NCBI RefSeq assembly: GCF_921293095.1
Contig: NC_060257.1
Location: 55,526,968-55,590,967, forward strand
DNA from: Ischnura elegans
Lineage: Eukaryota > Arthropoda > Insecta > Odonata > Coenagrionidae
Length of the DNA: 64,000 nt
Direction of reading: 5' to 3'
Positions 1,342-62,670 of the stretch are shown here, piece after piece. Under the pieces are notes generated by a model that saw only the letters and a program-made list of their open reading frames with translations, made no database searches and was not told the DNA's origin. Both the position numbers and the translations under genes were made by a program. The first letter of the stretch is position 1. Each line of letters starts with the position of its first letter.

Positions 1342-2010
1342 AATAGGGTGGTTTCCTATTATTTTTTTATTGCCTAAATCGAAAGATTATTACTCCTGGA
1401 GTACGTATTTCATGCTTTTAGATTTTTAAATGACGATATCTATTTTTCGCGATTAAATGAAAAGTGAAAATTTTCAAGCGCGCGAAAACGCGACGCGTAA
1501 GTAGGAATGATGGGAAAAAGTCCGTGCGACGCATTTCTGGTTCCCCCTCCCACCTTGTGAGGTGACCTTGATCGAGGCTCTGAGCGCTAATAGGACGCAG
1601 GATGCTAGCGGGTAGCTGAGTACCTTGCTGGATGGTAGCGCTTGGCTTAAAAAAGGTTTATTAATACCTTATCAAACGAAGAAAACTTTCCGACCTAAGC
1701 CAGTTTTAATAGGTGATTATTAAGACATGTTTCCCTGAGCTCTGTGCCTCATGCATGCATTGGTAACCTCAGACGATGTATAACTCCTATCCTCTCGTGT
1801 AGAAACTAGGTCCCTGTGACGTCACGTGGAGTGGAATCGCACGGGCGCCAATCTGGCCTTTTTCAAATGAGGATAAAATTTGACCCTTGCCATTCGTCAA
1901 AACCGGTATTTCAAAAACCAAATAATTTGTGTATTATGAATACACTAATGGTGGGTAACGAATCGCAATCAATGCCTTTCGTTTTCTTTGATGAAGGAAA
2001 CTACCCTATT
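1342..2010 (+). mobile_element. MITE of the AATAGGG family, copy 1
   Basis: A 669-bp repeat that starts AATAGGGTGGTTTCCT and ends AGGAAACTACCCTATT, so its termini are inverted repeats of about 16 bp. Closely related copies lie at 27566-28232 (+), 40289-40933 (+) and 41133-41802 (-). All share a CG-rich block near the first third, a CGTCACG block near the last third, and the same ends. No clear target-site duplication is visible, so the superfamily is not assigned. A 60-70 residue frame near the 3' end recurs in three copies, but it starts with GTG and is explained by DNA conservation. It lies in, or just downstream of, the visible dynein exons. Confidence 0.8.
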
Positions 2011-2623
2011 ATCTCAATGCAAATTTAAGTGACTGAAACTCCTCAAACACTAAACAGAGACATACTCAGACATATAGCTGTCAATACATGGAATAAAAGT
2101 ACTTAATACCAAAAATGGCACCTCAAATAAATTAGCAATTTCAAGATAGGAACTGCTCATGAGAAATGTACTACTTCCAGTGTAACAGGATTTTTTATGA
2201 CCCACAACAGAAATTTTTTGGAAGTCCTATCACAAAGGAAGTAATTCACTTTTCAATATTTTATGCAGCCAGGCTCTTATTCTATCCAATCATGCCTCAA
2301 ATGTGACAGGAAGCCACACTGGCAACAATTCAAAATCATAAATTGAAAATAATATCAGTATTACAAACACCACCAAGATGACAGTAATTTTTTTTACAAC
2401 TGATTGCAGAGGATTAATACCACAAAGAGAAAAAATCAATGCACTTTCCCTTTCTTTCATATGAAAAGAAATGATGCTCAGGAAATGAATTCTTTTATAC
2501 TAGGTGAGAAGGAACCCACCAGATTTTACTTACAAATAGGAGTATAGCTGATTTAACGGTAAACCATGTACAAAAATAGAAACTGTAAATTATATTGTGA
2601 AGCCTAGGCTAAATGAAACACAC

Positions 2624-6365: not shown

Positions 6366-6849
6366 AATGTTGACCAGTGATGGTAATAGCAGGGTTTTCT
6401 GTAAATATGAAATTCTTACTATGGATTTGGGGTGATCAAGAAAGTTAACTGTTTGTTGCATTCCATTTCTACTTTAGGTTATCTTGGGATGTTGAGAGTT
6501 GAAAAGATTCAAAAAGTTATCTCATTGTCAGACACATCTGGTCCATTAGCAGATGATGTCATCAACATAACAATACCAAAACAAAGCGTTATATAAGATG
6601 GAATGTGCGGAATTGGTATTCTAAATTGTCAAGATTTATTTCAGCTAATACAGGTGAAGGCAGGGATCTCATGGCAAGGCCATCTGTTTGGTGATAAAAA
6701 TTCTTATTGTACAGAAAATAATTTTGGTCAGCATACAGTTCCATGAGTAGATGAAGTTCATTAGCAACCAGTGTCTACATTGAAATCTCTCAGAAAATTT
6801 TTAGTAAGTTACAAGGTATTTTGAATTGGCACAGAAGTAAATAGATTTA

Positions 6850-7426
6850 AAGTATACCAGGACTAGCCGCAATTATAACTTTTACGGGAGTCACCCGCAA
6901 TGCACAATTGTGCGAAAGATCCATAGAGAAAAAATCATCGGCCATGACCGGGATTCGAACCCAGATTCCAGTCAAGTGCTTTAGCCAGTTAAGCTACCAA
7001 GGCATCCTTCTTCCCTGTGGACACTACCGGACAAGGTGTTGCTGGACTGCTGAGCATGTGATGCCACCAGCAGTCCAAATAGTGCATACAGCGCCACAGC
7101 TGGAGAGCAGGCCCGGACATAGAACACAAAGAGGTACAAAGAGAACACAAAGAAGAGACCAAAACTAGTCAAGAGCGATCACCTCTTTGTGTTCTATGTC
7201 TGGGCCTGCTCTCTGGCTGTGGCGCTGTGCGCACTATTTGGACTGCTTGTGGCATCATATGCTCAGCAGTCCAGCAACACCTTGTCCGGTAGTGTCCACA
7301 AATATCCACAGGGAAGAATGACGCCTCGGTAACTTAACTGGCTAAAGCACTCGACCAGAAATCGGGGGATCCAGGTTTGAATCCCGTTCAAGGCAGATGA
7401 TTTTTTCTCTGTGGATCTTTTACACG
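6850..7426. mobile_element. tRNA-like repeat, inverted dimer (copy A) with 12-bp direct repeats
   Basis: Two head-to-head copies of one repeat form a near-palindrome of about 577 bp centred near 7150. Each arm has a tRNA-like core: minus strand about 6940-7013, plus strand 7323-7395. The core has a B-box-like GGTTYGAATCCCG, a CTCGA/TCGGG anticodon stem and a GGA anticodon position (AGA in the plus arm). The dimer starts AAGTATACCAGGACTAG (a 3' end in reverse) and stops at GGATCTTTTACACG. The perfect direct repeat taaatagattta flanks it at 6838-6849 and 7427-7438. It is a tRNA-derived, SINE-like family, but the tRNA-like core sits mid-element, not at the 5' end. The cores are antisense and sense parts of a repeat, not functional tRNA genes: position 33 is C, and the acceptor stem has mismatches. 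Confidence 0.85.
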
Positions 7427-7438
7427 TAAATAGATTTA

Positions 7439-11549: not shown

Positions 11550-14500
11550 ATGCGTGCTAGGAACAAAGCCAGAGGAAATTCAGTAAGATTATTTATTTAT
11601 ATATAGTCATTTTCATGAGATTTTTATGAAAATGTTGCATCATATTGTTTTTAATGTGTTAAAATTGAATTTGCAGGTGAGCAAACCATCTCTCTCTGTA
11701 CAAGGAAAGCCAGCAGGAAGTGGGGATATAAGCAACGATTGGGGTTTTAAAGAAATAAATAATTCTGTGCCATCCTTATCTTCATTTCGTCCTCCGAGGA
11801 CTCCTAGAAAGCTCAATCAGAGATCATTCAGTACCCACAGGTGAGATTTAGTGTTCTTGTCTCTTTCATATTCACAGAGGTGTTTTGGATTATCTAATTA
11901 TTTTCTAACAGTACACCGACTTCCAGCAATGACAGTATGGGTCCATTGGAAACGGTCTTCCTTAATACAACCGTTGAAGGAAAAATTCATGCCACAAGGC
12001 ATCAAAAAGAAAAAGAAAGGAATCCGGATAGAATCAGCCTTGACAAGTAATGTCACTCAAGTAATTTTATTCTCGTTGAAAATTTCTCTGCCTTTCATCC
12101 CTAACCCGTTTAATGTCCCGTTTTTAAAGCAGGAGAGGAATTACAAGTTTTCCAATATTCTTGGGAGAGGGTAAGATAAAACTATTATCACTGCAGCACA
12201 ACCTTATCAATAAAATTGAAGACGTTGTTGGATTGAAAAGACTGGTATTTTTAGATCTGTATAATAACCAAATTGGAACCACTGAGGGCCTTGGATGTCT
12301 TCAGAATCTGCGAGTTCTGTTGCTCGGAAAAAACAGGTCATTGACCATTGCAAAAAATATTTATCAGTTAACTGATGTTAGTGTGAGTTGTCATTCTTAT
12401 TTTCGATAAATTCTTTTGTATTCCAGAATTCAGCAACTAAGCGACCTAGACGATCTAAAAAAATTAGAAGTTTTGGATTTACACGGGAATCAGATTTGTG
12501 AACTGGATGGGCTAAGCAATCTTCACGTCTTGAAAGTCTTAAATTTGGCTAGCAATCAAATACGTTGCATTGAAAAGTCAAGTTTGCAAGGCTTGCATTC
12601 TCTGAAGGAGCTCAATTTGAGAAGGAATCGTATAAAGCAGCTCAGTGGCTTTGAAGAAATTGCAGACTTACAAAAGTTGTATGTCAGCAATAACGACATC
12701 AGCAGGTGGGTATTTGCTTTATGCACATTTCTGCTGCGTGACTAAATTTTATATCATTAATATCAAAGGCAATTGTGGGGACCCATCAAGAGTATGGCTA
12801 CCCAGAGATATTGGGGTCTTGGAGCAATGGGTGCATTCATAGGTGAGAGTACATAAAACAGTCTGACAACAGAACCAGAATTTCCCCTGAATCCAACGGT
12901 TTAATAGACAACAGAATCTGACATTTCTTGAAATTGGTGCATTCATTGGGAGTGATTGCTCAGGAGTACTTCCATCACAGCTCTAGAATCTCCCCCTGAA
13001 TGCAACCACTATACGATGGCTCAGTGTCAGTGCTCATTTATTTCTCGGGGTGGTCATTTTGGCTGCTACTTGTCAGAGCACTCATTACTGATTGGCCGGG
13101 GTTGAGCTATTTTTTCTAGGTGTCCAATGGTGTGTTTTTGGATGATTCAAAAGCTCCTACCTTGCACTCAAATTATTTTTCCCATTCACGGAGGGGCTTG
13201 TAACATGCTACGTAGTTGTTGATGTTTTCCGGGTGTGCCCCACGTACTTATTGGGTTTGTTGCCTGACGTTTCGTGGCTCGTCAAATGGCAACTCCTACA
13301 CCACCACTCACTTCCCTTTCAACCTCCTTCCCTCCATGAACCCTTGTAAATATCCTCCATGAAAAAAACTGTTCTCATTCCCTCAGAAAAAGTGACTAGC
13401 AGTGGCCACAAAATGTCGCGCAACAAACCCAATAAGTATGTAGGGCACACCAGAAATACATCCCATCTAGTCCCGGTATACTTAAACTAGTCAAGAGCGA
13501 ACACCTCTATGTGTTCTATGTCCGGGCCTGCTCTCCGGCTGTGGCGCTGTGTGCACGATTTGGACTGCTTGTGGCATCATATGCTCAGCAGTCTAGCAAC
13601 ACCTTGTCTGGTAGTGTCCAAAAATATCCACAGGGAAGAATGACGCCTCGGTAACTTAACTGCGGCTAAAGCACTCGACCGGAAATCGGGGGATCCGGGT
13701 TCGAATCCCGGTCAAGGCGGATGATTTTTTCTCTGTGGATCTTTCACACGATTTTGCATTGCGGGTGACTCCCATATAAGGTATCACCGTGGCTAGTCCC
13801 GGTATACTTAAACCTTCCAAGTTTATTTTACTTTAACTGTTGGGGTCCGGGAGTTTGTGATTTAGCTACCAGTCAGTGTGGGAGAGAAGCTAGAAATATG
13901 TATTTTTCCACTCTAGCCTAGCCAAGTATCTCCCTGGGAGTGAACCCTTATAATCCAATTGGACCCTTCCTTATTTCAAACCAAGTGATGGGCCTAGATT
14001 TGGGCACTTTTTGTAGGCACATTAACAGTGTGGAGAGGGTAGGAAACAATAAAAAATGGGCAGTACGAGGGTACATTCCAGGAGGTAACCCCTGCCATGA
14101 GGGCTGGCGTGGGGGAGAGTTAAGCCCCTTTGCAATCCTTATGGCGAGGGAAAGTGCACAAGGGCATGATATTTGGGTAGCAATAAATGTTTTGGGAAAC
14201 TGCTGCAGGAAGTCAACCTATTGTCAAATGTTTAAAAATGTTTTTCCTGCATTTAGTGCACAAAACGTATAAAAATGTTCCTGTAGTCTAAGGATTAAAT
14301 GTTGTGTTGCTGATATATTAGTTAAATAATTATATATTAATTTTTATAATTGGAAGGTTTAATTTTATATTGATGAGAGAATAAAACTTTGCTCTTCTAT
14401 GCATGTTGGTAAATATGATTCAACAGTTTAGTTAATTCTTTTCTTCTCATGTTTAACTTTTTATCATTCTTCTAGTATAAATGACATGCATGAGCTGGCC

Positions 14501-27514: not shown

Positions 27515-27565
27515 TCCTAAGGTCTCGCTAAGCTGGGACTCAGGCTGAGCCTGAATGCATCCAAC

Positions 27566-28232
27566 AATAGGGTGGTTTCCTATTATTTTTTTATTGCCTT
27601 AATCGAAAGATTATTACTCCTGGAGTACGTATTTCACGCTTTTAGATTTTAAAATGATAATATCTATTTTTCGCGATTAAATGAAAAGTGAAAATTTTCA
27701 AGCGCGCGAAAACGCGACGCGTTAGTAGGAATGATGGGAAATCTCTCCGTACGTCGTATTTCTGGTTCCCCCTCCGCCCGGTGAGGTGACCTTGAGGCGA
27801 GGCTTAGCGCTGATACGTCGCAGGCTGCCAGCGGGTAGCCTAGTGCCCTGCCGCCTGGTAGCGCTTGGCTTAAATAAGGATTATTAATACCTTATCAAAT
27901 GAGGAAAACTTTCCGACCTTAGCCAGTTTTAATAAGTGATTATTAAGACATGTTTCCCTGAGCTCTGCGCCTCATACATGCATTGGTAACCTCAGACGAT
28001 GTATAACTCCTATCTTCTCCTATAGAAACTAGGTCCCTGTGACGTCACGTGGAGCGGCATCGCATGGGCGCCAATCTGGCCCTTTTCAAATGAGGATAAA
28101 AATGGACCATTGCCATTCGTCTACACCAGCATTTATAAATCGAAATAATTTGTATATTATGAATACACAAATGGTGGGTAACGAATCGCAATTATTGCCT
28201 TTTGTTTTCTTTGATAAGGAAACTACCCTATT
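27566..28232 (+). mobile_element. MITE of the AATAGGG family, copy 2
   Basis: 667 bp, collinear with copy 1 (1342-2010) through its whole length, with intact AATAGGG..CCCTATT ends. It is inserted in the TTAA-ended element, whose sequence resumes on the right with a block that matches 16349-16480. Confidence 0.8.
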
Positions 28233-28544
28233 GCTACCTCAGTGATCACTTCCCTTTCCTCGCATTGGCTAGAGCCGGCATCAGGTCTTCTGCGTATGAA
28301 AATCCCCGTCGGCTCCACCCGACGTTTGGCGCAAAAGGGTTAAGAATGCCCACTCATTCCACTCTATTCAATGCTTTCTCAAAGCAAGTATTCGCGTCCT
28401 GGTTATATTCCATGTTTCTCTCCACTATACTCCTATTTACAGTAATTGCATCACAATTGACGTTCCTTTCCTGAAACCAAAGTAATTGTCTCCCAAAGAA
28501 TCATTTGCCATTACTATCATTAGTCTATTTATAATCCTCAGCAC

Positions 28545-29190: not shown

Positions 29191-30696
29191 TAGTGATGGG
29201 CATTGTGTGAGTGAGTCAGTTTAAATGTGCGACTCAGCAGATAGAACTGTGAGGTGAAAGAGTCTTATTTGGTGAGTCACGACTCTCTCTCCTTCGCAGA
29301 CTGCGCACGACTCCCTCCCCTTCGCAGACCGCACACCATATGACATTTAACATATTATATCCAAAATTCAAACTCCTCAGACGAATGCGTTAGTCTCAAC
29401 AACAGTTTAACCGTGTTTTACTGTCAGAATATGCATTTCGTAGGAAATGATCGACTATTACTCCTGGGTTATTGCTTTCACAGCATTGAAATGCCTTGTA
29501 TAATACACACATGACATTTAACATACTTTACCCAAATTTCAAACCCCTCAGACGAATACATTAGTCTCAACAACAGTTTAACCGTGTTTTACTGTCAGAA
29601 TATGCATTTCGTAGGAAATGATCGACTATTACTCCTGGGTTATTGCTTTCACAGCATTGAAATGCCTTGTATAATACACACATGACATTTAACATACTTT
29701 ACCCAAATTTCAAACCCCTCAGACGAATACATTAGTCTCAACAACAGTTCAACCCCCTCCGCCCACACTGTGCGTGTTGGAGTTGTGAGCGGTAGAAGTC
29801 GGTTCCATGTGCACACGACTCCCTTACCGCACAATGTGCACTGAATTGTGCGAGGCGAAGTCAAGACTCCCAGCGCTCACCCCCCCTCATCCCACAATGT
29901 GCGCGTTAGAGTCGTGTGAGGTGGGGGTCAGACACCATGGGCACACGACTTCTTTCGCACACACTGTGCGTGTTGGAGTCGTGAGCGGAGGAAGTCGGAC
30001 TCCAGAGGCACACGACTCCTTCCACAAACATTTTCCGTGTGAGGTTCATCGCACATTTGGTGGGTAAAAAGGGAGCACATGGGACTTTTCGAGGGTAGCC
30101 CACTGCTCACCTTTTCACGCCACTTGAAAGATTCTCCTGATTCATTGTCTGGGTATTACTCTAAAGAATCTCACGTGACCCTTATCGTAATTCTCTCTCC
30201 CCTGTATGTTCCATGCATCGTTAAAGAAAGATGATGGAAGACGCTCATGTAAAAGTTTTTGGCAACGGCAAATTTATGAAAATAATACGAGACAAAAATG
30301 AAAATTTGTTTTAACAATTAAGATTAATCGATGGAATTAATTATGGACTGTTAACATGATCATGTAGTTTCGGAGAGAATATTTTGTTACAACAGAATTT
30401 TTAAATTGCCGTCATCTATAAGCACAAGAGACGGAATACATTTTCCATCTTCCATGAAGGATATAAGGTATCGGCAGAAATATTTCCTCAGTAATATCAC
30501 CTGTGAATTGAATACAATTTTTCAAATTGTGATCTAGGAAATGTTCGTTCAGAAATCCCTCCCTCACCACCTTCCCCTCTTCCCCACTACCCTCAACCCA
30601 GAAGCGCTTTGCTGAGTCGCACTGTGCGGCGGCTCTCAGGAGTGTGCTATGAGCGGTGAGGCAGATCCACAAAAAGAGTCGTTCATGCCATCACTA
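29191..30696. mobile_element. hAT-like non-autonomous element with GACTC subterminal repeats
   Basis: Starts TAGTGATGGGCA and ends TGCCATCACTA, an inverted terminal repeat of the type found in hAT elements. GACTC/GAGTC pentamers and ACGACTC octamers are scattered near both ends and along 29760-30030, consistent with subterminal transposase-binding sites (inference). The interior holds a 171-bp tandem repeat. No transposase is seen. The 8-bp flanks do not match convincingly. Confidence 0.65.
29341..29752. repeat. 171-bp tandem repeat, 2.4 copies
   Basis: Units start at 29341, 29512 and 29683, each with TGACATTTAACATA. The period is exactly 171 bp in both steps. The second unit is nearly identical to the first beyond its opening 70 bp, and the third is partial. 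The array lies inside the hAT-like element at 29191-30696. Confidence 0.9.
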
Positions 30697-40000: not shown

Positions 40001-43000
40001 GTCACCTTACTTCTCAAGGTATTTGTGATGAAAAACCAAAGGCTCAACCCTTCTGCAGATAAACTGATTATGCCACTAACTCATGATGAGCAGATTGATT
40101 GGACATATGTCACAGCCTTTTTTGAATAAAAAATATTTGGTTTTACTGGTATTCAAACCTAATCTCCCGATTGCGGGTGAGCCGTGTTAGCTTAATTTAC
40201 TCTACCAAGCCATCTTTCCAAAGCATACTTAAGGATATGATTTACTGAACGAGTTGCTGTTGAAGTTTGCTCTGGAAAGATGTGCTGTAATCGGGTGGTT
40301 TCCTATTGTTTATTGTATTGCCTAAATCGAAAGATTATTAATCCTGGAGTACGTATGTCACACTTTTAGATTTTTAAATGACGATATCTATTTTTTGCGA
40401 TTAAATGAAAAGTGAAAAATTACAAGCACGCGCAAACATGACGGCTAAGTATGAATGTTGGGAAAAGTCCATGTGACGTCATTCTGGTTCCGGCTGCCGT
40501 CATGTGAGGCAGCCTTGGTGAAAGACTATGAGCGCCGCTACGATGCAGGCTGCTAGCAGGTAGCGCTTGGCTTGAATAAGGATTATTTATACCTGATCAA
40601 ACGAAGGAAACTTTCCGACGATTGGCAATTATAATAGGTGATTTTTAAGACATGTTTCCCTGAGCTCTGTGCCACATACATGCATTGGTAATCTCAGATG
40701 ACATAAAACTCCTACTACTTGTATAGCATCTAGATCCCTGTGACGTCACGAGAAGTGGCATCGCATGGGTGCCAATCTGGCCTTTTTCAAACCAGGTTAA
40801 AATTGACTATTAACATTCGTCTAAACTGGGATTTATAAAACCAAATAAATTGTATATTATTAGTACACTAATGGTGGGTAACGAATCGCAATTAATGGCT
40901 TTCGTTTTCTTTGATGAAGGAAACTACCATATTGTCTAACACGCCTTACCGGCAATCAGGAGATCTAGGTTCAAATCTCGGTTAAGCCAAATACTTTTTA
41001 ATGGCGAACTTCATCCTTGGTGTATAAAACTTTGCACCCACGTGGGTGATTGTGCACAAAGTCACTTGTTTCATGCTGTGCAATGAGGAGTTTGTTCTTT
41101 CAGACTTGAAATCAATTGGAATACATGAAAAGAATAGGGTAGTTTCCTTCATCAAAGAAAACAAAAGGCATTGATTGCGATTCGTTACCCACCATTACTG
41201 TATTCATAATATACAAATTATTTCGTTTTAGAAATGCCGGTTTAGTCAAATGGCAATGGTCCATTTTTATCCTCATTTGAAAAGGGCCAGATTGGCGCCC
41301 ATGCGATGCCACTCCACGTGACGTAACAGGGACCTAGTTTCTATAAGAGAAGATAGGAGTTATACATCGTCTGAGGTTACCAATGCATGCATGAGGCACC
41401 GAGCTCAGGGAAACATGTCTTAATAATCACCCCATTAAAACTGGCTAAGGTCGGAAAGTTTTCTTCGTTTGATAAGGTATTAATAATCCTTATTTAAGCC
41501 AAGCGCTACCAGCCAGCAGGGTACTCAGCTACCCGCTAGCAGCCTGTGTCGTATCAGCGCTAAGCCTCGCTTCAAGGTCACCTCACAGGGCGGCAGCGGG
41601 AACCAAAAATACGTCACACGGGGAGATTTCCCGGCATTCATACTTACCCGTCTCGTTTTCGCGCGCTTGAAAATTTTCACTTTTCATTTAATCGTGAAAA
41701 ATAGATATCGTCATTTAAAAATCTAAAAGCGTGAAATACGCACTCCAGGAGTAATAATCTTTCGATTAAAGCAATAAAAAAATAATAGGAAACTACCCTA
41801 TTGGATAGATGGAAGGTAAAGATGAGGCCATTCTCTTTTTAGTATTTCAGTAAGAAAATGTGAAAGTTGCCACCCAATTTCCATGAGTCAGTGACATCAT
41901 TAGAGTTCTGTTTCATTAACTCATTCAGGGAGTACCTTTCTCCATGAGGAAGGCACCACTCACACGAGAGTAAACTACAATGAATTATGCGAGGCCCATG
42001 CAGAAGCAAGCACAGAGCCATAAATTTGCTGATTGAGGAGCTAGAGTATGGGGCTTGCCTGTATGCACTGACTTTTTTGTCAATTGGCTTGCATCGAAAA
42101 ATCATACATTTTATGGAATCAGGTCTACATTTGGTTCGTATAATGCTGAATGTTAAATCCGTATTTGGTTATTGGCTGATGTGAATTATAACTACAGCAG
42201 ACTACCGATTATCCGGCTGCGGTTTATCTGGGTTTCGAATTATATGTGCATGATTTTCACTCTTGCTCAGTTTTTTCCACGATCTTTATAAAAAAATAGA
42301 ATCGGATGCAAAATCATCGAAATTATTGCATTAATGCCAGGGTACACCGGGCTTATTATTTCCATAAGAATCCCCCTCGTAAAACGCAATCGATGACGTG
42401 CTAGCTGCATTCACGGGAGCACTGTGTTCCTGTTTTCCAAGCCTCGCAGTGCGCGACTCCTTGATCACGGATACAGTGTAATTTCCGACGTCAAGCAGTG
42501 GTTTTAAAGCATTCTGCAAACAAGTTTTCTGTATCCGTGATCACACAGCAACGGATGTGTGGTTTTCGGAACCAGGCCTTACATGGAGCATTAATAATAT
42601 GGGTACAACCATGTTATCGCCACTAAAAAGATCGAAAACTGGTGAAGAGAGCTCTCAATGAGTCCGGGAAGTACTCTTAAATAACAGAATTACTGCATAA
42701 ATAATAATATATTATAAGCGATTGAATGAACTACGGCCGTTAAACGGTTGAAAGAAAATTAATGCCCCAGGGCCGTACTGGGGAATTAATTTTCTTTCAA
42801 TAATATATTGTTTGTTTTGCGTAAATTATTAATATTACAAGACATTTAATTGAAATGTAAGATTTCACTTCTTCCCGGCGTATGATGGCGGTGAATTCTT
42901 CTCGGGTTTCCATCTGGGTGAGCTCCATCTCCATCGCTGCCGACGTTTCGATAGAATCCTTTTCTATCGTCATCGGCCCTGATGACGATAGAAAAGGATT

Positions 43001-44937
43001 CTATCGAAACGTCGGCAGCGATGGAGATGGAGCTCACCCGGATGGAAACCTGAGAAGAATTCACCGCCATTTAAGTGAAAGTTTGGGTTATCCGTGTTTC
43101 CCAATTATTCGTGCCGTCTCTCCCCATCATTAGCCCGGATAATCGGGAGTGTACTGTACATTGAAAGATGGAGTGTCGAAGGATAAATGCCCCTGGGCTA
43201 GTGTTCTCCTCAGCTGTAAGCAGGTAGTTGCCGAAAGGGAAAAAGGAATGGCCTGTAGCCACCCAAGTCCCTTTCTCCTATATGCCTGTGCACTAGGCCA
43301 AGGAGTAGCTGAGAAGTGGTGACCTTTTTAACATGAGCTTGTGGCATCTTAATTTATATGCAAAAATAATAATATAATAAAGATATTTATTTTGCTGCCC
43401 AAAAGTTACCCTTATATACATCGAAGGTTTGTGAAATTAGGCACTCCAAGAAGATACAATATTGTTTAGGGGTTGCCATTAAATGTAAATAAGGCATTGC
43501 TCAGGAGTACATTTTACACAGTGTTTAAACAAAAGTAGCTCATCAATGACTCGTCATAGTTGCATGTATCCATAAATTATGGATTCAAGTATGTGAGCAA
43601 ACTTGGAAGCCATTGCAAAATACATTAATAGCAAATTATCATGATACAAAATTAAAATCAAATAGCATGTACATAAAAATAGAGGAGTATTAGGAATTAA
43701 CATAATCAATGGAACCCATGCCTTGAGGAAAATCAAATAATTATCTCAAATAGAAATTCAACATTCTTGTGAAGAAACAGCCTGCCTTTCAATTTATGAA
43801 AAAATGCAGCTTGGCTATCTCAACAAAGTAATTATTGCCATAGTTAATCATATAATTTTGGTGCTAAATAATTGTATAAGTGTTATTATGCTTCATTTTT
43901 TGTTTCAGAATAAAAGTGAAACGTGAAAGCCATCAATTTTTCTCTTAGAATAGCTCAAGAAGTAGTCCATTGTTGTTAAGACCATCTTGTTTTCATGATT
44001 TCATTATAAATTTTACTCTTTGGACAGGAACATGAAGAGGGAGAGAGGAAATTGGTGGTACTCTCGCGATGAACATAATTTTGCCATACAGTGTTATCGC
44101 CGTGCCCTTGATTTCCTGGATGACATAGAAGGTGGTATACTTGTGGAACCTGATCAAGATGGAAAGAAGGTAGACCTAGTGAAAAATTTCTCTGAAAAGG
44201 TGACGTATTTTTTATGGGTCAACTTCTGTAATATTCAATCATTTATCCTCAGCCAAATGAAGATGAGCTTCAGGATCTCCTTGAAGATCGGTTGAAAGTC
44301 TATAATAACTTAGCTGCTGCTCAGTTAAAAATAAAAGCATACGATTCTGCTCTATCATCTGTTCAGACTGTTCTTCGATGCCAGCCCAAAAATGTCAAAG
44401 CACTCTTTCGGAAGGGGAAGGTAAATAGATATTCATTGTATTGAATCAACTTCTTTATGATTATTTATTTATACTAACGTCATGAATCATTAATGTATGA
44501 AATTGAACTAATACCCAATACATTGTGTAGATACTTGCAGCCAGAGGTGATACGGAGGCAGCTATACCTGTTTTGAGACTCGCCAGTCAGCTGGAACCAG
44601 AATCCAAAGTCATTCACCAAGAACTATCCCAACTAGTGAAGCAGAAGAAGAAAGATTCTGAAATGGAAAAAAATTTGTATAGAAGAATGCTTGGTCAGGA
44701 CAAGGTTGATGAAAACTCCAAAATAGACTCAAGGTCTAAGGTAAATGTATTGAATATCTTTTAACTTTGAAAGACCTCGTAATATTTGGTTTTCCTTTGG
44801 GTTTTTGTTACAACTGTGTTTTAATATGTCTCATTACTTTCAATTTGCAGTATAGCAAGATATCTTGGGGACTTGTTCTAGGAAGCCTCGCTACTATGTG
44901 CGTGGGTATAGCAGCATACAAATTTAAACTTGTGTGA
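37088..44937 (+). CDS. FKBP8: FKBP8/FKBP38, TPR immunophilin with C-terminal anchor
   Basis: Eight exons join in phase: 37088-37091, 37230-37393, 37760-37894, 37974-38182, 44028-44199, 44253-44420, 44531-44740, 44851-44937 (1,149 nt, 382 residues, TGA stop). Exon 1 gives only ATGG before a GTAAGC donor; this restores the usual M-A-E start. Residues about 45-150 are the FKBP-type domain ([51 protein letters not shown]). Residues about 172-320 are TPR helices ([54 protein letters not shown]). Residues about 358-378 form a membrane helix followed by KFKLV. The domain keeps VI but has Leu where FKBP12 has Trp59 and lacks the Phe-Asp pair, as in FKBP38, which is weakly active alone. Family members sit on mitochondria and ER and bind BCL2 and HSP90. 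Human FKBP8 is 412 residues. Intron 4 (about 5.8 kb) is full of transposons. Confidence 0.93.
38611..39818. mobile_element. piggyBac-like MITE, FKBP8 intron 4
   Basis: Starts CCCTTTCAC and ends GTGAAAAGG, flanked by TTAA at 38607-38610 and 39819-39822. TTAA targets with CCY..RGG ends are the piggyBac signature. At 1,208 bp with no transposase frame it is non-autonomous. The matching terminal repeat is short, about 9 bp. Confidence 0.65.
40148..40985. mobile_element. Second tRNA-like inverted pair, interrupted by a MITE
   Basis: A tRNA-like core lies on the minus strand at about 40148-40220 (TGGCTTGGTAGAGTAAATT, then AATCGGGAGATTAGGTTTGAA). A related 3' half lies on the plus strand at 40934-40985 (CAATCAGGAGATCTAGG, then TTCAAATCTCGG). 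The sequence GGAAAGATG precedes both, at about 40216 in reverse and at 40275. The AATAGGG MITE at 40289-40933 sits between the 5' part and the 3' half of the right-hand copy. The sequence differs from the family at 6850, but the inverted layout is similar. Confidence 0.5.
40289..40933 (+). mobile_element. MITE of the AATAGGG family, copy 3
   Basis: 645 bp, collinear with copy 1 but more diverged. Its ends have changed (AATCGGG and CCATATT). It faces copy 4 at 41133-41802 tail to tail across 199 bp. Confidence 0.75.
41133..41802 (-). mobile_element. MITE of the AATAGGG family, copy 4
   Basis: 670 bp, inverted relative to copies 1-3, with AATAGGGTAGTTTCC at its left and AAACTACCCTATT at its right. 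It lies in FKBP8 intron 4. Confidence 0.8.
42195..43156. mobile_element. Tigger/pogo-like non-autonomous element, FKBP8 intron 4
   Basis: Starts CAGCAGACTACCGATTATCC and ends with the near inverse of CAGTACACTCCCGATTATCC, flanked by TA at 42193-42194 and 43157-43158. A short frame near 42600-42660 ([15 protein letters not shown]) could be the start of a lost transposase, but this is weak. A palindrome is embedded at 42885-43070. Confidence 0.75.
42885..43070. repeat. Near-perfect palindrome, 90-bp arms, 6-bp spacer
   Basis: Arms 42885-42974 and 42981-43070 agree at 88 of 90 positions by eye. The centre reads GATGACGATAGAAAAGG outwards, then CTATCGAAACGTCGGC. The CTGATGACG..CGAAACGTCGG pattern resembles the 3' terminal motif of Penelope-like elements. 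It lies inside the Tigger-like element, whose own ends are more diverged, so the palindrome looks younger. Confidence 0.9.
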
Positions 44938-47967: not shown

Positions 47968-48559
47968 TGGGCTTAGGTAGAGCACTTGTCTATGTACTTA
48001 TCAGAACAAGCATCAGCTGATAGGCAATGGTGACTCTTGAGAACTCAGCTGGTTTACCATTTTAAGCTGAGCTTCAGCTGTGAACATTGGAGATTTTCTT
48101 ACCCCAAAGGACTGATCTTTGTACTCTAATGACCCTTTCTGTTCCTCCATAGCATGCAACATAGGTAAATGTTTTTTTTTCGAGTCACTGCACCCACCTA
48201 GATTACGGTTGTTTTGTTTGATCCATTTACTCTCTCATCTGCTCAGATGATATACCTAATATGGCCCTGACCTTGAACTCCTTCAGAGCTCAATAATAAT
48301 AACCAGATAGCTATGATTCAGCCCATGTGCACGCTGTTATGCAGGAGGTGGTGGGAAAGTGACCACCGCTCAAGCCACGCAGCAAGGGGGTTTTGTGGGG
48401 TTCAATTTTATTGGAAAAAAACATGTTTTCAAATGGTTTTTCTCTGATAACCAAAAAAAATGTGTATTATCAAGGAAAGTGTAATGAATTAAATTCTAGC
48501 ATAAAAAAAGATGTTTTTTAAAGAAACGGAAGAAGCACGCGACTGGCCTGAGTACTTCC

Positions 48560-49665
48560 CTCCTTCCTGCAGACATCAATAATGGAAGAAAGTGGTGTAA
48601 ACTTCCGTTTTTTCACAAGTTATCTTATAAAATAGGGAATCTCATTCCTAAGGACAAATACAAAGTCGCCTTCTACACACCAAACTCGCTCAAAAAACTA
48701 CTACGTAAAAACAAGGACACTATTGAAAAAACTAAAATGAGCGGGGTGTACGAGGTATTTTGTGATTGTGGAAAGAGCTATGTAGGGCAAACAGGTCGTG
48801 ATTTCACCACGAGAATGAAGGAACACAAGAAGTGCAGGGGCGGATCCAGGATTTCTTTCTGGGAGGGGGCACAAGCAAGGCCGTGTCCAGGACATTGTTC
48901 TGGGGGGGCACAAGGATACCTCGTAATACAAAACGAATGCAATGATAATGGGACTTCATTAAAATCTTCCATATTTTTTAAGGTTCTGGGGGGGGCATGT
49001 GCCACCATCCCCCCCCTAGGTCCGCCTATGAAGAAGTGCAAAGAAAATGGGGAACCGTGGTGGCCAAACACATGTTAAATTCGGCCCATGATTGCGAATT
49101 TGATCCGGATATTCTCCACGTAGCCGACAAAGGAAGAAAACTTGATGCCCTGGAATAAATAGAAATAAATATAAGGAAGAAGAGTAATAAGCCCCTCCTC
49201 AACGAACTTCTATACTACACCAGCTCACCCCTCCTATCCATGATTGACTTCCATTAACCCTTCGTCCTCCCCCTCCCATCCCTTCTTTCCACCAGGGCAC
49301 GGTATGCCTGCCCCCCCTCATCCTCCTCGATGGCTGACACTATGAGGCATCCAGGGGTAGGTGACCGGACCGAGTGACCGAAAGAGATTGGAACCCAGCG
49401 TAGTGTGGGAACCAGGGGCCTTCCCGCCAACCCCTTTGGAGCAAAAGCATTAAAGCCAATTAGTTGTGTATTCGTCATACTTCCTCACTGCCTCCATCGG
49501 TTTTTCCAAGCACCTGTGATTGTACACCCTTCCCTTCCTTTCTTCCCCTTCCTCCGCCTTACCACCCCCATCCTGCCTTTCCTATTTAAGACGTTGCAAA
49601 CTTTGATATATTGTACCTGATGATGCTGTAAAGCGAAACCGGTAGTGCCAATAAATTTAATATTG
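48560..49665 (+). mobile_element. Penelope-like element, broken 3' part with GIY-YIG domain
   Basis: The visible part encodes a region ending in SGVYEVFCDCGKSYVGQTGR, a GIY-YIG endonuclease domain that in retroelements marks Penelope-like elements. A region resembling the family C-terminus follows near 49080-49160, then a tail with CTGATGATGCTG..GCGAAACCGGTAG near 49617. The RT domain is absent. The copy is broken and was later hit by the hAT MITE at 48835-49030. Age looks intermediate, because motifs are still readable. Confidence 0.82.
48835..49030. mobile_element. hAT MITE inside the Penelope-like element
   Basis: 196 bp, starting CAGGGGCGGATCCAGG and ending CCTAGGTCCGCCTATG, with a perfect 8-bp duplication, aagaagtg (48827-48834, 49031-49038). 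Confidence 0.92.
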
Positions 49666-58647: not shown

Positions 58648-61507
58648 TATGTAGCAAACAATGAAGTGAAATAATATGCATTTGTTTTGATGATCTCTAA
58701 TGGTGACAGCATTATTGAAATTTGTAGTTGATTATATTCTTCTTCAAACACCACATTAAAACTCATTTCATGGCTTCAGCTGTACTATGTAGAATTCTTG
58801 ATTCAGGAAAGAAACTGCTTTGTACTTCCCATGCTAATTATTTTACTACGGTTTTAAAATGGTGTGCCATTATCAAGAACTTGGTAATACTCATACACGG
58901 AATTTTTTAAATTTTCACAGGGAAAGTTGAATACCAGTCAATGATAAAGAGATGCTTGAACCCCTTATCTCAATGTGTTAGTCATCTTCCTTGGGGCATA
59001 AACAGCCATGACTCATGTATTTAGTCACCTATGCTCACTATGTTTATAAAGTCAACACCACGGAATCATGTTGGGAACCAAATGTTTGCTGGAAATTTTT
59101 GAGTAATACCTTTCATTAGCCAAAGGAATTCTATGAAAACTGATTCGAGAAAGTACAGCCAACCGCTCATTTTGTGCGAACTTAGTCATGTGCTTTATGA
59201 GGTCATAAGTTATACTTCCTTCTCTGGCATTGGATTGGGCTGCTGTCTCCGATTGGATTTGGGAGCTCACTGTCTACCTCTAGAGGAATGATTATTTTGT
59301 TGCTCTCTCTACTTATTATTTTGCTTATTCATGTTAAGTGAGTGATTTTTATTATTAGTGTCCTGGGGACTACGTGTTAGTTGAATTTTGTCATTCTGGA
59401 TGGACAGCACAGGCTACAACGACTTTTCACTACATGACTTCATTTCACAGGATAATTTTTCTCTCAGGCTCATAAAGCATAATCAGGATAAAAGGATCCA
59501 TGAATGTAATGTAACAATTTGGAAACTCATGCAATTAGTTTTAAGTTGCTGGGACATTATTCTGGGAGCCACTAGAGACTCAGAGGCTATGTGCTACACT
59601 TGGATTGCTTGAGCTATTTAGAACAGATATCTTTCAAGCTACACAGAGTACACCATCTTATAACCTAATTATATTTCTAAGTTCAACAGGAACGATTCAA
59701 TAAGAGAGATTTTGCAGAAAGGATAGTTATAGGAGTTTGTTTCTTATAGGTTTCTCTCCTTAACAATGAAGAACTTTAATACAAAGTGGGACTCGGTTGT
59801 CAACTTTCTGCGGGGAACGCCTTCTTTTCCTCTATTTTCTTTATGACGGTCTGTTGTTACACCTCTGCCACATGCCTATTTAGGGGGCTTGAAAGAATTT
59901 GTAAATGTACACCTTGCTGTGCTTTTCCTAAAATCCACGTTAATGATTGCTATGAAATTTATATTAAGCCAGGGATATAAAAAAAAATCGGCCAAGAAAT
60001 CAGGGAAAAAGTAATTTAAAAAAATGGAAAGTTGGTTTGAATACTTTATTTTCTTAACTTTGTTACTCACAATAATGTTATAGATGTGCTATTTCATGTT
60101 TTTGTTTTTAATTTCTCAGGATTTTTGTTGATTTAAGTACATATTGTATCGATTGTTGACTTTAGTGTATCTGAATCAATAGGTGTTGGAAGAGCATCCT
60201 TCATCATTTTTCAATCACAGCATTATGTTATTTGGCTTTACTAAATATGTTAAAATATTCTGAAAAAAAAACAGAAGAAAGAGTGGGAAATGTAAATTTC
60301 ACCGCTGCTCAGGATAGAAAGGTATCACTTTTTAACTAAGTGACAGATTTGAAATTATCACATTTTTACCATGGGTGACTTTAGTGGAGGTTTGTGGTTC
60401 TTGAGTGCCTTAAAACTTCTGGGAAATCCATTCTCTTTGGCATTGCCATCTTGAATGCACTGTCTTCGGAAGAATGCATCCACACTCCTAGCATAATGCA
60501 TCCACATTACTAGCACAATGCATCCACATTCCTAGCACAATAGTTTCCTATATGTCATCAGAAACTCGTCTTCATATTTACAGTGTTTTTTATCAGAATT
60601 TCCTAGGAAAAAATTCTCATTTTTTATGTGTGGAATGTAGTGACTCGAATTAAATCGCTATGTTTTTTCAAGAACTTCTACATGCATTGACATGACAGTT
60701 GATACAATTAAGGAACAGACTTATAATTGCATCTTCCAGGGGAGCTTTATAACAATCGTATGACTGCTAAACATTGCTGCTGCAGAAAACGACTATTTTC
60801 GCTGTGTGATATTTTGCATGCCTGTAGTCTTAGGTGAAGTCTGCAACCACCTAGTCAAACGACCTTCAGGTCGAATCGCTGAGTGTGAGATGCAATCCTT
60901 TTTGAAGGGAAAAATCTTTTACTAGGCTGAGAAAGTGGGCTCTTGATTCGTAATTGGATTTCACAAATTTTAATGCAGTAACTTGGTGTTACCAAAGTCT
61001 GTCATTGCAAATTGAGTAGCTAAAATTTTTCAACGTGTGCATTGGAGATCATAACAGTTTTTTTCCCTAGGAAACCAAATCATTCGTATCCAAAAGAATT
61101 TTGAAACACATTAGGATCAACATTGCTTATTAACTGCACTAGTCACTGATGATAGAGCAACTGTGAATTAAATTTAATACATTCAGGCCCTTAGAACGTT
61201 TTGACTTGCAATGGGGGTCACTCACTTTCAACAAAATACTCCCACTGCCTGTTTTGGCCATAATGATGATGAAAGAGTAATACATTGAAATATAATTGTG
61301 ATATTTCTGCAATAGCTTGAATCATAATTTCAAGGGTTTAAAGATGTCAGCAATTATTTTAAAAATAGATTTGAAATTGATACCCCCTTAAATTTTCTCA
61401 AAATACTTTAGATAACCTCACGTAACAATAATGATGTTTGTAGGGTACATTATGGTAAGCTGTATTCACAATGAGCTGAAATTCCTAGCTTTGTCATTTC
61501 ATAATTA

Positions 61508-62075
61508 TGCGAAAAATCCACAGAGAAAAAAATCATTCGCCTTGACCGGGATTCGAACCTGAATCCCTCGATTTCCGGCCGAGTGCTTTAGCCAGTTAAG
61601 CTACCGAGGCGTCATTCATCCCTGTGGAAATTTGTGGGCTATTCCAGACAAGGTGGTATGGACTGCTGAGCATATTATGCGACGAGCAGTCCAAATCGTG
61701 CGCACGGCGCCACAGCCGGAGAGGAAAGTCCGAACTTAGAACACATATAGGTGTTCTCTCTTTGACGAATTTAAGTATACCAGGACTAGCCACGGTGATA
61801 ACTTTTACGGGAGTCACCCGCAATGCACAATTGTGCGAAAAATCCACAGAGAAAAAACCACCTTGTCCGGTATAGTCCACAAATTTCCACAGGGATGAAT
61901 GACGCCTCGGTAGCTTAATTGGCTAAAGCACTCGGCCGGAAATCGAGGGATCCGGGTTCGAATCCCGGACAAGGCGAATGATTTTTTTTTCTCTGTGGAT
62001 TTTTCGCACAATATGGCATTGCGGGTGACTCCCGTAAAAGTTATCACCGTGGCTAGTCCCGGTATACTTAAATTC
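61508..62075. mobile_element. tRNA-like repeat, inverted dimer (copy C) with direct repeats
   Basis: The same family as 6850-7426, in the opposite overall orientation. Cores lie at 61539-61611 (-) and 61903-61976 (+), with a GGA anticodon position and a B-box GGTTCGAATCC. An extra reversed 3' end (about 61770-61855) lies between the arms. The dimer ends GGTATACTTAAATT at the right and begins TGCGAAAAATCC at the left. The direct repeat cataatta (61500-61507, 62076-62083; extended match 9 of 10) flanks it. Confidence 0.82.
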
Positions 62076-62670
62076 CATAATTAAGTGCTTTAGAGTGACA
62101 TGCCTAGGTGGTTGATGTTTGCATAATTTGTTTGGCAGTTTTATGTAATTTTTTTGGCCGCATCCGAGATACATGCCTTCATTTAATTCCCTAGAGATGG
62201 TGCAATGTCTGCGGAGATACACTAACCCATAGTGCTCATTTAGAGAGCATTTTACAGAAAAATCACAGTAACGCAATGTTGTCAGGCACTACTTTCCACG
62301 TCCAGAATGTATGTAGGGTTACTGATGTATATCCAGCCTGTTTTCCATTCCTCCATCTTAAGAGTGGCTTCTTTGGAAGCCCTATAAGTTGATTATTTAG
62401 TAATCATCAGGTTGCCCATGCTACCTTATTGAAATGAATAAGATAAAATTATCATAATTATCACACAATTTTTATTGACTTGCCATCTTTTCTTCAATTA
62501 TCATAGCTTTTCCTGGCCACGCCTACTATTTACTCAAGCCAAGAACTAGAAAAGCCTTAGATAGCCTTGTCTTATGCCCTCTTAACTGTTTGCCATCCTT
62601 CTTACCCTATTATTAGCCTCTGACAGTTGATAGCATTCCTTATTTTCTGTCTTGTATGTCTCCGTATTCT

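What the first reader, a model, noticed from the sequence alone, without database searches (positions are those of the whole stretch)
6850..7426. tRNA-like inverted dimer that appears to have moved as one unit
The dimer is bounded by a perfect 12-bp direct repeat (taaatagattta). One end is the complete 3' terminus of the monomer (AAGTATACC). The other stops at an internal point (GGATCTTTTACACG). Copy C, 54 kb away, has the same two termini. Most SINEs carry the tRNA part at the 5' end and insert as single units. A head-to-head dimer with a mid-element core and repeated termini suggests an undescribed family or mechanism.
Basis: partly seen in the sequence, partly recalled or inferred. Interest (0 to 1): 0.75.

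Follow-up and report, generated by a model that had tools for sequence, protein, structure and literature searches.

The report
Two-armed tRNA element, Penelope-style insertion
A short tRNA-bearing jumping element, present in many hundreds of copies, inserts as two head-to-head cDNA arms the way Penelope retroelements do, and the arms seem to record where the copying enzyme stalled on a tRNA-like RNA.

Summary
The dimer (6850-7426) is a family member with recurrent anatomy: one arm ends at unit ~325-328, the inverted arm ends outward at unit 256-266 (67 of 87 left arms), inner junctions vary, and 60 of 68 inserts with a standard inverted arm carry a direct repeat of at least 8 bp (chance 2%; mostly 12-13 bp). 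Three insertions have clean empty paralogous sites. A 60-bp end matches 1111 places, against 0 for the control. Head-to-head arms, partial tandems, and one end longer by a fixed 'tail' are the published Penelope (PLE) signature, and most PLE dimers examined in this genome show it. Best reading: a non-autonomous, tRNA-bearing element copied by a PLE-type enzyme that primes on both target strands from two fixed internal RNA sites. Inverted arms stop in excess at tRNA nucleotide 59, just 3' of A58 (8 of 41, then 5 of 46 in a sample fetched after the prediction was noted), as at m1A58. The two arms' stops are correlated, as if copied from one RNA. The helper PLE was not identified; methylation and co-copying are inferred. 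New variant of a known kind.

The parts
6838..6849 (.). target-site duplication of copy A, first copy (taaatagattta)
   Evidence: read; direct repeats of at least 8 bp in 60 of 68 comparable loci
6850..7135 (-). copy A, arm ending at the 3' end with tail (unit 17 to ~325; outer end aagtatacc; the match runs to 6846, into the duplication)
   Evidence: BLAST of the doubled consensus
6940..7003 (-). tRNA-like domain in that arm
   Evidence: Rfam RF00005, 34.1 bits
7136..7161 (.). filler between the two arms of copy A
   Evidence: gap between the two BLAST matches
7162..7426 (+). copy A, inverted arm ending at the internal start site (unit ~264, ...ggatcttttacacg)
   Evidence: outer end at unit 256-266 in 67 of 87 left arms
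7323..7395 (+). tRNA-like domain in the inverted arm
   Evidence: Rfam RF00005, 30.8 bits
7427..7438 (.). target-site duplication of copy A, second copy (taaatagattta)
   Evidence: read
13467..13812 (+). copy B: 20 bp of 3' end (13467-13486) then one full 326-bp unit (13487-13812); no inverted arm and no duplication found
13645..13719 (+). tRNA domain of copy B (called Ser by anticodon GGA; no long variable arm)
   Evidence: Rfam 42.9 bits; ARAGORN
61508..61857 (-). copy C, inverted arm of about 350 nt (more than one unit)
61859..62075 (+). copy C, arm ending at the 3' end with tail (unit 114 to ~325; the match ends at 62069-62072)
61500..61507 (.). 8-bp direct repeat cataatta at copy C, first copy
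   Evidence: read; script
62076..62083 (.). 8-bp direct repeat cataatta at copy C, second copy
   Evidence: read; script

Best explanation
A non-autonomous, tRNA-bearing retroelement of ~325-bp unit, mobilised in trans by a Penelope-like (PLE) RT-endonuclease. The template is sense RNA that runs on from one unit into the next (multimeric or circular). The enzyme cuts both target strands mostly 12-13 nt apart at a symmetric AT-rich site (AAn-TSD-nTT) and uses both 3' ends as primers. One primer starts cDNA at unit ~325-328, the other at unit ~260-264 of the same RNA; the ~64 nt between them is the counterpart of the PLE 'tail'. The two cDNAs run 5'-ward on the RNA, stop, and are joined, giving head-to-head arms with fixed outer ends, a variable inner junction and a duplication. 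Shown from sequence: recurrent outer ends, duplications, empty sites for three insertions, a symmetric target motif, arms longer than one unit, the excess of stops 3' of A58, and correlated stops of the two arms. Inferred: that a PLE does it, that the stop is m1A58 (or another block at that base), and that the trailing cDNA halts behind the leading one on one RNA.
For: (1) Outer ends: 67 of 87 left arms at unit 256-266, while the inner junction is spread over the unit. (2) Duplications of at least 8 bp in 60 of 68 loci with a standard inverted arm, 5 of 20 without, 3 of 6 with another left arm (Fisher for the first two, p 1.4e-7); longest common stretch 12 bp in 24 and 13 bp in 12 of the 55 with at least 10 bp. 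(3) Clean empty paralogous sites for 3 insertions (L108, L013, L058) among 60 joined flanks compared with the DNA held, L058 with the help. (4) TT at +2,+3 after the TSD in 30 of 55 (background 0.113), AA at -3,-2 before it in 20 of 55 (background 0.12), which fits cutting of both strands. (5) Same-genome PLEs: dimers whose two outer ends lie 24-37 nt (family A, four dimers) or 33-50 nt (family B, three dimers) apart by BLAST ends, with a common stretch of at least 12 bp at the two ends in 7 of 9 examined. (6) PMC11167929 (outline and parts 1-3 of 4 read): a purified PLE cuts and extends both strands and starts cDNA at two internal sites; the gap is the tail. PMC3846280 (passages): typical Penelope insert = inverted pLTR 37 bp shorter than the direct ones, 31-bp tail, 9-bp TSD. 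(7) Left-arm inner ends at unit 216-218 (tRNA nt 58-60): 13 of 87; largest 3-nt pile in 2000 uniform draws was 7. Of these, 8 of 41 were in the sample that suggested it and 5 of 46 in loci fetched after the prediction was noted (p 6.7e-5). (8) The right arm stops 8-36 nt 3' of the left arm's stop in 24 of 70, 10.1 expected, p 5e-5 in a shuffle within strata.
Against: No helper PLE sharing the two start sites was found: families A and B have other end sequences, and in the 7 PLE dimers with duplications the nTT motif is present by eye in 1. Two of nine PLE dimers (L066, L078) show no duplication, and the left end of L078 is not at either usual site. No hammerhead core in the unit on either strand, though A and B have one by regex. 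The gap of ~64 nt is longer than the published 30-40 nt. A T6 run (unit 237-242) follows the tRNA, yet most arms start beyond it, so the template is not a simple terminated Pol III transcript. The right-arm pile at 216-218 is weak: 5 of 69, only 2 of them where the left arm ends elsewhere. Another pile, at 133-137 (12 of 87), is not explained by A58. The arm-arm correlation and its interval were chosen after looking at the data; in the full-unit sample alone it is not significant (4 of 24 at 8-30 nt, 1.9 expected, p 0.10), and the one-sided order alone (right stop never 5' of left) is not significant once the 216-218 arms are removed (29 of 33, p 0.20).
Confidence: 0.74

Rival explanations
1. 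LINE-driven SINE with twin priming: an ordinary LINE RT copies the RNA from its 3' end, and the second target strand primes internally on the same RNA, giving an inverted 5' piece.
For: Inverted arm, TSDs of 10-16 bp and a tRNA promoter all occur with LINE-driven SINEs (recalled); no helper PLE was identified here.
Against: The second start is fixed at unit 256-266 in 67 of 87 left arms instead of scattered by microhomology; templates run over unit boundaries (9 left arms longer than 325 nt); no A-rich or simple-repeat tail at the ends; PLEs of the same genome have the same anatomy.
Confidence: 0.13
2. The inverted arm is made by self-priming (snap-back) on an antisense template, as proposed for Adineta Penelope in PMC3846280 (passages read).
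For: Inverted arms and correlated inner ends are expected from fold-back; palindromic joints occur (L049, L055, L105 with both arms ending at 216-217).
Against: Snap-back of the right cDNA needs the left arm to begin 3' of the right arm's end; in the tail-anchored sample with both arms under 300 nt the reverse order or equality holds in 38 of 42. It does not explain the fixed outer end at ~262. A stop just 3' of A58 needs copying of sense RNA inward from 262.
Confidence: 0.08
3. Fold-back DNA transposon (MITE) with fixed termini and internal deletions.
For: Recurrent termini, flanking duplications, inverted halves.
Against: The two outer ends are not inverted repeats of each other (CGTGCGAAAG against AGTTTAAAGTATACC); ends are ragged by a few bases and TSD length varies 10-16; inner ends pile up at a tRNA position.
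Confidence: 0.02
4. A metazoan retrozyme-like element: tandem ~300-bp monomers expressed as circular RNA and moved by PLEs (PMC7229834, passages read), here with a tRNA in place of the hammerhead.
For: Monomer size, partial tandem arrays, arms longer than one unit, a very stable fold (-120 kcal/mol for 324 nt).
Against: No hammerhead core on either strand and no ribozyme in three Rfam scans; note that Rfam did not ring for the PLE hammerhead-like motifs either. No evidence of circular RNA here. This overlaps with the best explanation more than it opposes it.
Confidence: 0.2

Closest known systems
Penelope-like elements (Penelope/Poseidon clade; PMC11167929, PMC3846280)
   Same: Head-to-head arms, partial direct tandem, one outer end longer by a fixed tail, TSDs, cutting and priming on both strands, internal cDNA start at two sites, AT-rich target.
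   Different: No RT/EN ORF, no hammerhead found, tRNA domain inside, gap between the two starts ~64 nt instead of 30-40, high copy number of short copies.
Metazoan retrozymes (PMC7229834)
   Same: Short tandem monomers of about 300 bp, non-autonomous, PLE suggested as helper by those authors.
   Different: Retrozymes are defined by type I hammerheads and circRNA; here none was found and a tRNA is present; the passages that I read do not describe fixed two-ended inverted arms.
tRNA-derived SINEs
   Same: tRNA-like domain with a B box (GGTTCGAATCC), hundreds of copies or more, TSDs.
   Different: The tRNA is mid-element, the unit is tandem, the inverted arm is common, and the inferred helper is a PLE and not a LINE.
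L1 twin priming (recalled)
   Same: Two primers on one RNA give an inverted piece next to a direct piece.
   Different: Here the second start is fixed on the template.

Membership tests
Penelope-like element | encodes telomerase-type RT with GIY-YIG endonuclease | tested here: not met
   the unit is 326 bp, too short to encode it; such ORFs exist elsewhere in the genome
Penelope-like element | partial direct tandem plus inverted arm, with one outer end longer by a fixed tail | tested here: met
   outer ends at unit 256-266 (67 of 87) and ~325-328; gap ~64 nt, longer than the published 30-40
Penelope-like element | target-site duplication | tested here: met
   60 of 68 with at least 8 bp; empty sites for 3 insertions
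Penelope-like element | hammerhead motif in the pLTR | tested here: not met
   no CTGANGA...GAAA core on either strand; Rfam negative but Rfam also missed the PLE motifs
Penelope-like element | copied by PLE protein | not testable with these tools
   no helper identified; needs biochemistry
tRNA-derived SINE | tRNA-related internal Pol III promoter | tested here: met
   Rfam tRNA up to 55.4 bits; by sequence only, transcription not tested
tRNA-derived SINE | tRNA head at the 5' end of a single-orientation unit | tested here: not met
   tRNA at unit ~159-231 of a tandem unit; 68 of 94 loci have a standard inverted arm
tRNA-derived SINE | 3' end shared with a helper LINE | not tested
   no LINE library available
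Metazoan retrozyme | type I hammerhead | tested here: not met
   no hammerhead core by regex
Metazoan retrozyme | circular RNA | not testable with these tools
   no RNA data

The most novel reading that the evidence does not exclude
A first Penelope-dependent tRNA SINE whose insertion junctions are a molecular recording: each insertion freezes two cDNAs made together on one tRNA-modified RNA, so that the left-arm ends map the methyl group at A58 and the offset between the arms (about 9-33 nt) measures how close a second reverse transcriptase can follow the first.
Probability: 0.45. Interest if true: 0.85.

Novelty: new variant of a known kind. Interest (0 to 1): 0.68.

Why it matters
How PLEs make their odd inverted ends is an open question: one paper proposes self-priming on antisense RNA (PMC3846280), another shows both strands cut and extended in vitro (PMC11167929). 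A short family with over a thousand end matches, short arms, duplications and empty sites allows that to be tested by counting. It also suggests that PLEs can support a SINE-like parasite, and that RNA modification can leave a trace in genomic DNA.

Tried and rejected
Rejected: chance rearrangement (recurrent ends and TSDs); DNA transposon; a hammerhead in the unit (and Rfam); a special subtelomeric form (L058-L063 are one insertion copied by segmental duplication, counted once). PLE families A and B as helper: no shared end sequence. One locus (L033) has ~90 bp of foreign sequence between the TSD and the left arm; it gave no convincing match to A or B. m3C32 as cause of the small pile at 193-197 (6 of 87): the position does not fit. 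Rows dropped before the counts: L052 (same place as L040), L059-L063 (copies of L058), L001-L008 (same places as other rows), and, for the TSD counts, 17 of 114 loci that run into the end of the fetched stretch plus 3 of the remaining 97 without the tail as right end. The 39 loci of the first sample were picked by similarity to a full unit, so their right arms are biased to be long; the tail-anchored sample is free of that bias but favours young copies (at most 1 mismatch among the places listed). TSD lengths are longest exact common stretches and can include a chance base or two. The consensus position numbers (325 per unit) differ by a base or two from those of copy B (326). One script stopped with an error in its last part; that part was rerun.

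Full report
1. What is there. The window lies in a 1.72-Gb animal assembly. Copy A (6850-7426) consists of two opposed, partial copies of the ~326-bp unit seen whole at 13487-13812 (copy B), between perfect 12-bp direct repeats at 6838-6849 and 7427-7438. Copy C (61508-62075) is a second composite with the same outer ends to within a few bases and an 8-bp repeat. Each full unit holds a tRNA-like domain (unit ~159-231; Rfam; called Ser by its GGA anticodon, without a long variable arm) followed by T6, inside a long predicted stem. The consensus of 40 full units folds at -120 kcal/mol for 324 nt. Those units are 93.5-99.1% identical to it, median 97.8.

2. It is a family with recurrent outer ends. 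A search with the unit gave 3638 candidate places, of which 40 were scored. The 60-bp 3' end has 1111 matches with up to 3 mismatches; the reversed control has none. I parsed 114 loci: 39 picked by full-unit similarity, 72 picked by the tail, and the 3 window copies. One outer end is at unit ~325-328 (...CTTTAAACTA). The inverted arm's outer end lies at unit 256-266 in 67 of 87 left arms and at 236-270 in 74; of the 13 outside 236-270, 7 belong to loci cut by the fetched stretch, and one of the others (L043) has the tail type at both ends and no duplication. The inner junction varies. Left arms range from 14 to 903 nt, 9 of them longer than one unit, so the RNA copied runs from one unit into the next.

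3. It inserts as one event. Of 94 untruncated loci with the tail end, 68 have a left arm starting at unit 236-270; 60 of the 68 have a direct repeat of at least 8 bp and 55 of at least 10 bp. Loci without a detectable left arm have one of at least 8 bp in 5 of 20, loci with another left arm in 3 of 6. Mispaired flanks reach 8 bp in 2.0% of 4000 draws and 10 bp in 0.075%. The repeats are mostly 12 or 13 bp (36 of 55). For 60 insertions I joined the flanks and compared them with all DNA held; six had some match across the joint. Three of these (L108, L013, L058) have clean, somewhat diverged empty copies with the duplication present once; L101 aligned poorly, and the weaker matches of L038 and L039 were not looked at. 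Empty sites for L108 and L013 lie in the window itself (1698-1895 and others; 42511-42707).

4. Target. In 55 loci with a TSD of at least 10 bp, the bases at +2,+3 after it are TT in 30 (background 0.113) and those at -3,-2 before it are AA in 20 (background 0.12); both in 11. A symmetric motif fits an enzyme that cuts both strands alike.

5. Penelope. A purified PLE protein cuts and extends both target strands and starts cDNA at two adjacent internal sites of its RNA, the gap being the genomic tail (PMC11167929; outline and parts 1-3 of 4 read). In Adineta a typical Penelope insert has an inverted pLTR at one end, 37 bp shorter than the direct ones, a 31-bp tail and a 9-bp TSD (PMC3846280; passages). 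The genome holds many GIY-YIG PLEs (149 matches from 150 scored of 2199 candidates); in that list I count by eye 16 close pairs in head-to-head order and saw none in the other order. Two families were read (A: L070-L072, L075-L077; B: L066-L069, L073, L078, L079). By BLAST ends, the two outer ends of their dimers lie 24-37 nt apart in A (L071, L075-L077) and 33-50 nt apart in B (L068, L069, L079), and 7 of 9 dimers examined share a stretch of at least 12 bp at the two ends; L066 and L078 do not, and the left end of L078 is at neither usual site. The short element shows the same anatomy with a gap of ~64 nt. Its end sequences do not match A or B, and the nTT motif is seen by eye in only 1 of those 7 PLE dimers, so the helper is probably another family. 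Six further stretches downstream of GIY-YIG matches (three of them family B, one related to A) did not reveal it; one, L146, has a 73% match to the tRNA part of the unit but not to its ends.

6. A stop at A58. Left arms are read inward from unit ~262. Their inner ends pile up at unit 216-218: 13 of 87 (one search lists them). Unit 216 is A58 of the T-loop TTCGAAT, and 217 is nucleotide 59. The first 41 left arms gave 8; I noted the prediction before fetching L080-L139, which gave 5 of 46 (p 6.7e-5 against a uniform spread). The right arms joined to these 13 start at 11 different positions, so this is not one recurrent joint. A pause on entering the T-stem would lie at about 219-224. The classical block at this base is 1-methyladenosine (recalled). 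Right arms of the tail sample show only a weak pile (5 of 69, 2 of them where the left arm ends elsewhere). A second left-arm pile at 133-137 (12 of 87) lies where the RNA is predicted to pair with the region just 5' of the left start (fold); it may mark the far side of that hairpin or an RNA 5' end. Smaller piles at 193-197 (6), 178-183 (5) and 113-121 (8) are not explained.

7. The two arms are linked. Taken modulo one unit, the right arm stops 8-36 nt 3' of the left arm's stop in 24 of 70 loci; shuffling within each sample gives 10.1, p 5e-5, while the mirror interval shows no excess (5 seen, 6.2 expected). The signal comes mainly from the tail sample (16 of 46 at 8-30 nt, 5.8 expected); the full-unit sample alone is not significant (4 of 24, 1.9 expected, p 0.10). 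Without the 216-218 arms, the short-armed tail sample still shows 12 of 33 against 5.4 (p 0.0018). In 42 tail-anchored loci with both arms under 300 nt the right stop is at or 3' of the left stop in 38 (33.0 expected, p 0.004), but this order alone is not significant once the 216-218 arms are removed (29 of 33, p 0.20). Copy A itself has +19, copy C -123. The simplest reading is two cDNAs growing on one RNA, the one begun at 328 halting behind the one begun at 262. A rival reading is that both stop at opposite flanks of the same hairpins. This pattern and its interval were chosen after the data were seen.

8. Novelty. Eight text searches of the held open library; in the listings shown (1 to 20 rows each, of up to 1,221 papers) I saw no tRNA SINE attributed to a PLE and no report of an m1A58 footprint in insertions. 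They did bring up one mention of short nonautonomous Penelope elements in Heliconius (PMC6685494, passages) and metazoan retrozymes, hammerhead-bearing ~300-bp tandem units for which PLEs are suggested as helpers (PMC7229834, passages). Most subscription papers are not held, and a key PLE paper (PMC8557442) was not available, so this is no proof of absence.

9. Host. A COX1-like nuclear copy reads as arthropod-like, by my recollection of such proteins, under the invertebrate mitochondrial code, and 13 of the contigs seen exceed 90 Mb. From memory of karyotypes this suggests a horseshoe crab, perhaps Tachypleus; not tested.

Noticed in passing
window 6377-6768 (-): A decayed, frame-shifted PLE reverse-transcriptase fragment (39-62% identical to PLE B residues 446-583 in three pieces, with a YVDD-like motif) lies 70 bp from the duplication of the dimer; no convincing continuation was found on the dimer's other side, so it may be chance.
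   Followed up: partly
window 48509-49245 (+): Remains of another PLE (RT end and GIY-YIG part, about 33-35% to PLE B) with a hammerhead-like CTGATGATGCTGTAAAGCGAAAC, by eye, near 49617.
   Followed up: partly
window 1342-2019, 27565-28237, 40290-40937, 41124-41803: A dispersed repeat of at least ~680 bp, with two opposed copies at 40290-41803; it supplies empty sites for locus L108.
   Followed up: no
window 42885-43070: Near-perfect palindrome, two 90-bp arms 98% complementary with a 6-bp loop.
   Followed up: no
window 29337-29754: Tandem array of a 171-bp unit, three copies at least in part.
   Followed up: no
L058-L063 and other places: One insertion of the element inside a subtelomeric segmental duplication shared by many chromosome ends, flanks 96-100% identical; the empty site exists on C1 (L140, L141).
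   Followed up: yes
L072 position 4360, L073 position 4142 (reverse-complemented loci): Hammerhead-like cores in both PLE families by regex, missed by Rfam at E up to 1.
   Followed up: partly
L033, about 90 bp 5' of the left arm: Foreign sequence between the duplication and the inverted arm, possibly a third template copied in the same event.
   Followed up: partly
L146 740-822: A 73% match to the tRNA part of the unit (164-247, E 2.5e-9) downstream of a PLE related to family A; perhaps a related tRNA element.
   Followed up: no
L025, L115, L055, L132, L044: A few left arms start at unit 236-246, at or near the T6 run, as if the template were a terminated Pol III transcript; too few to test.
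   Followed up: no
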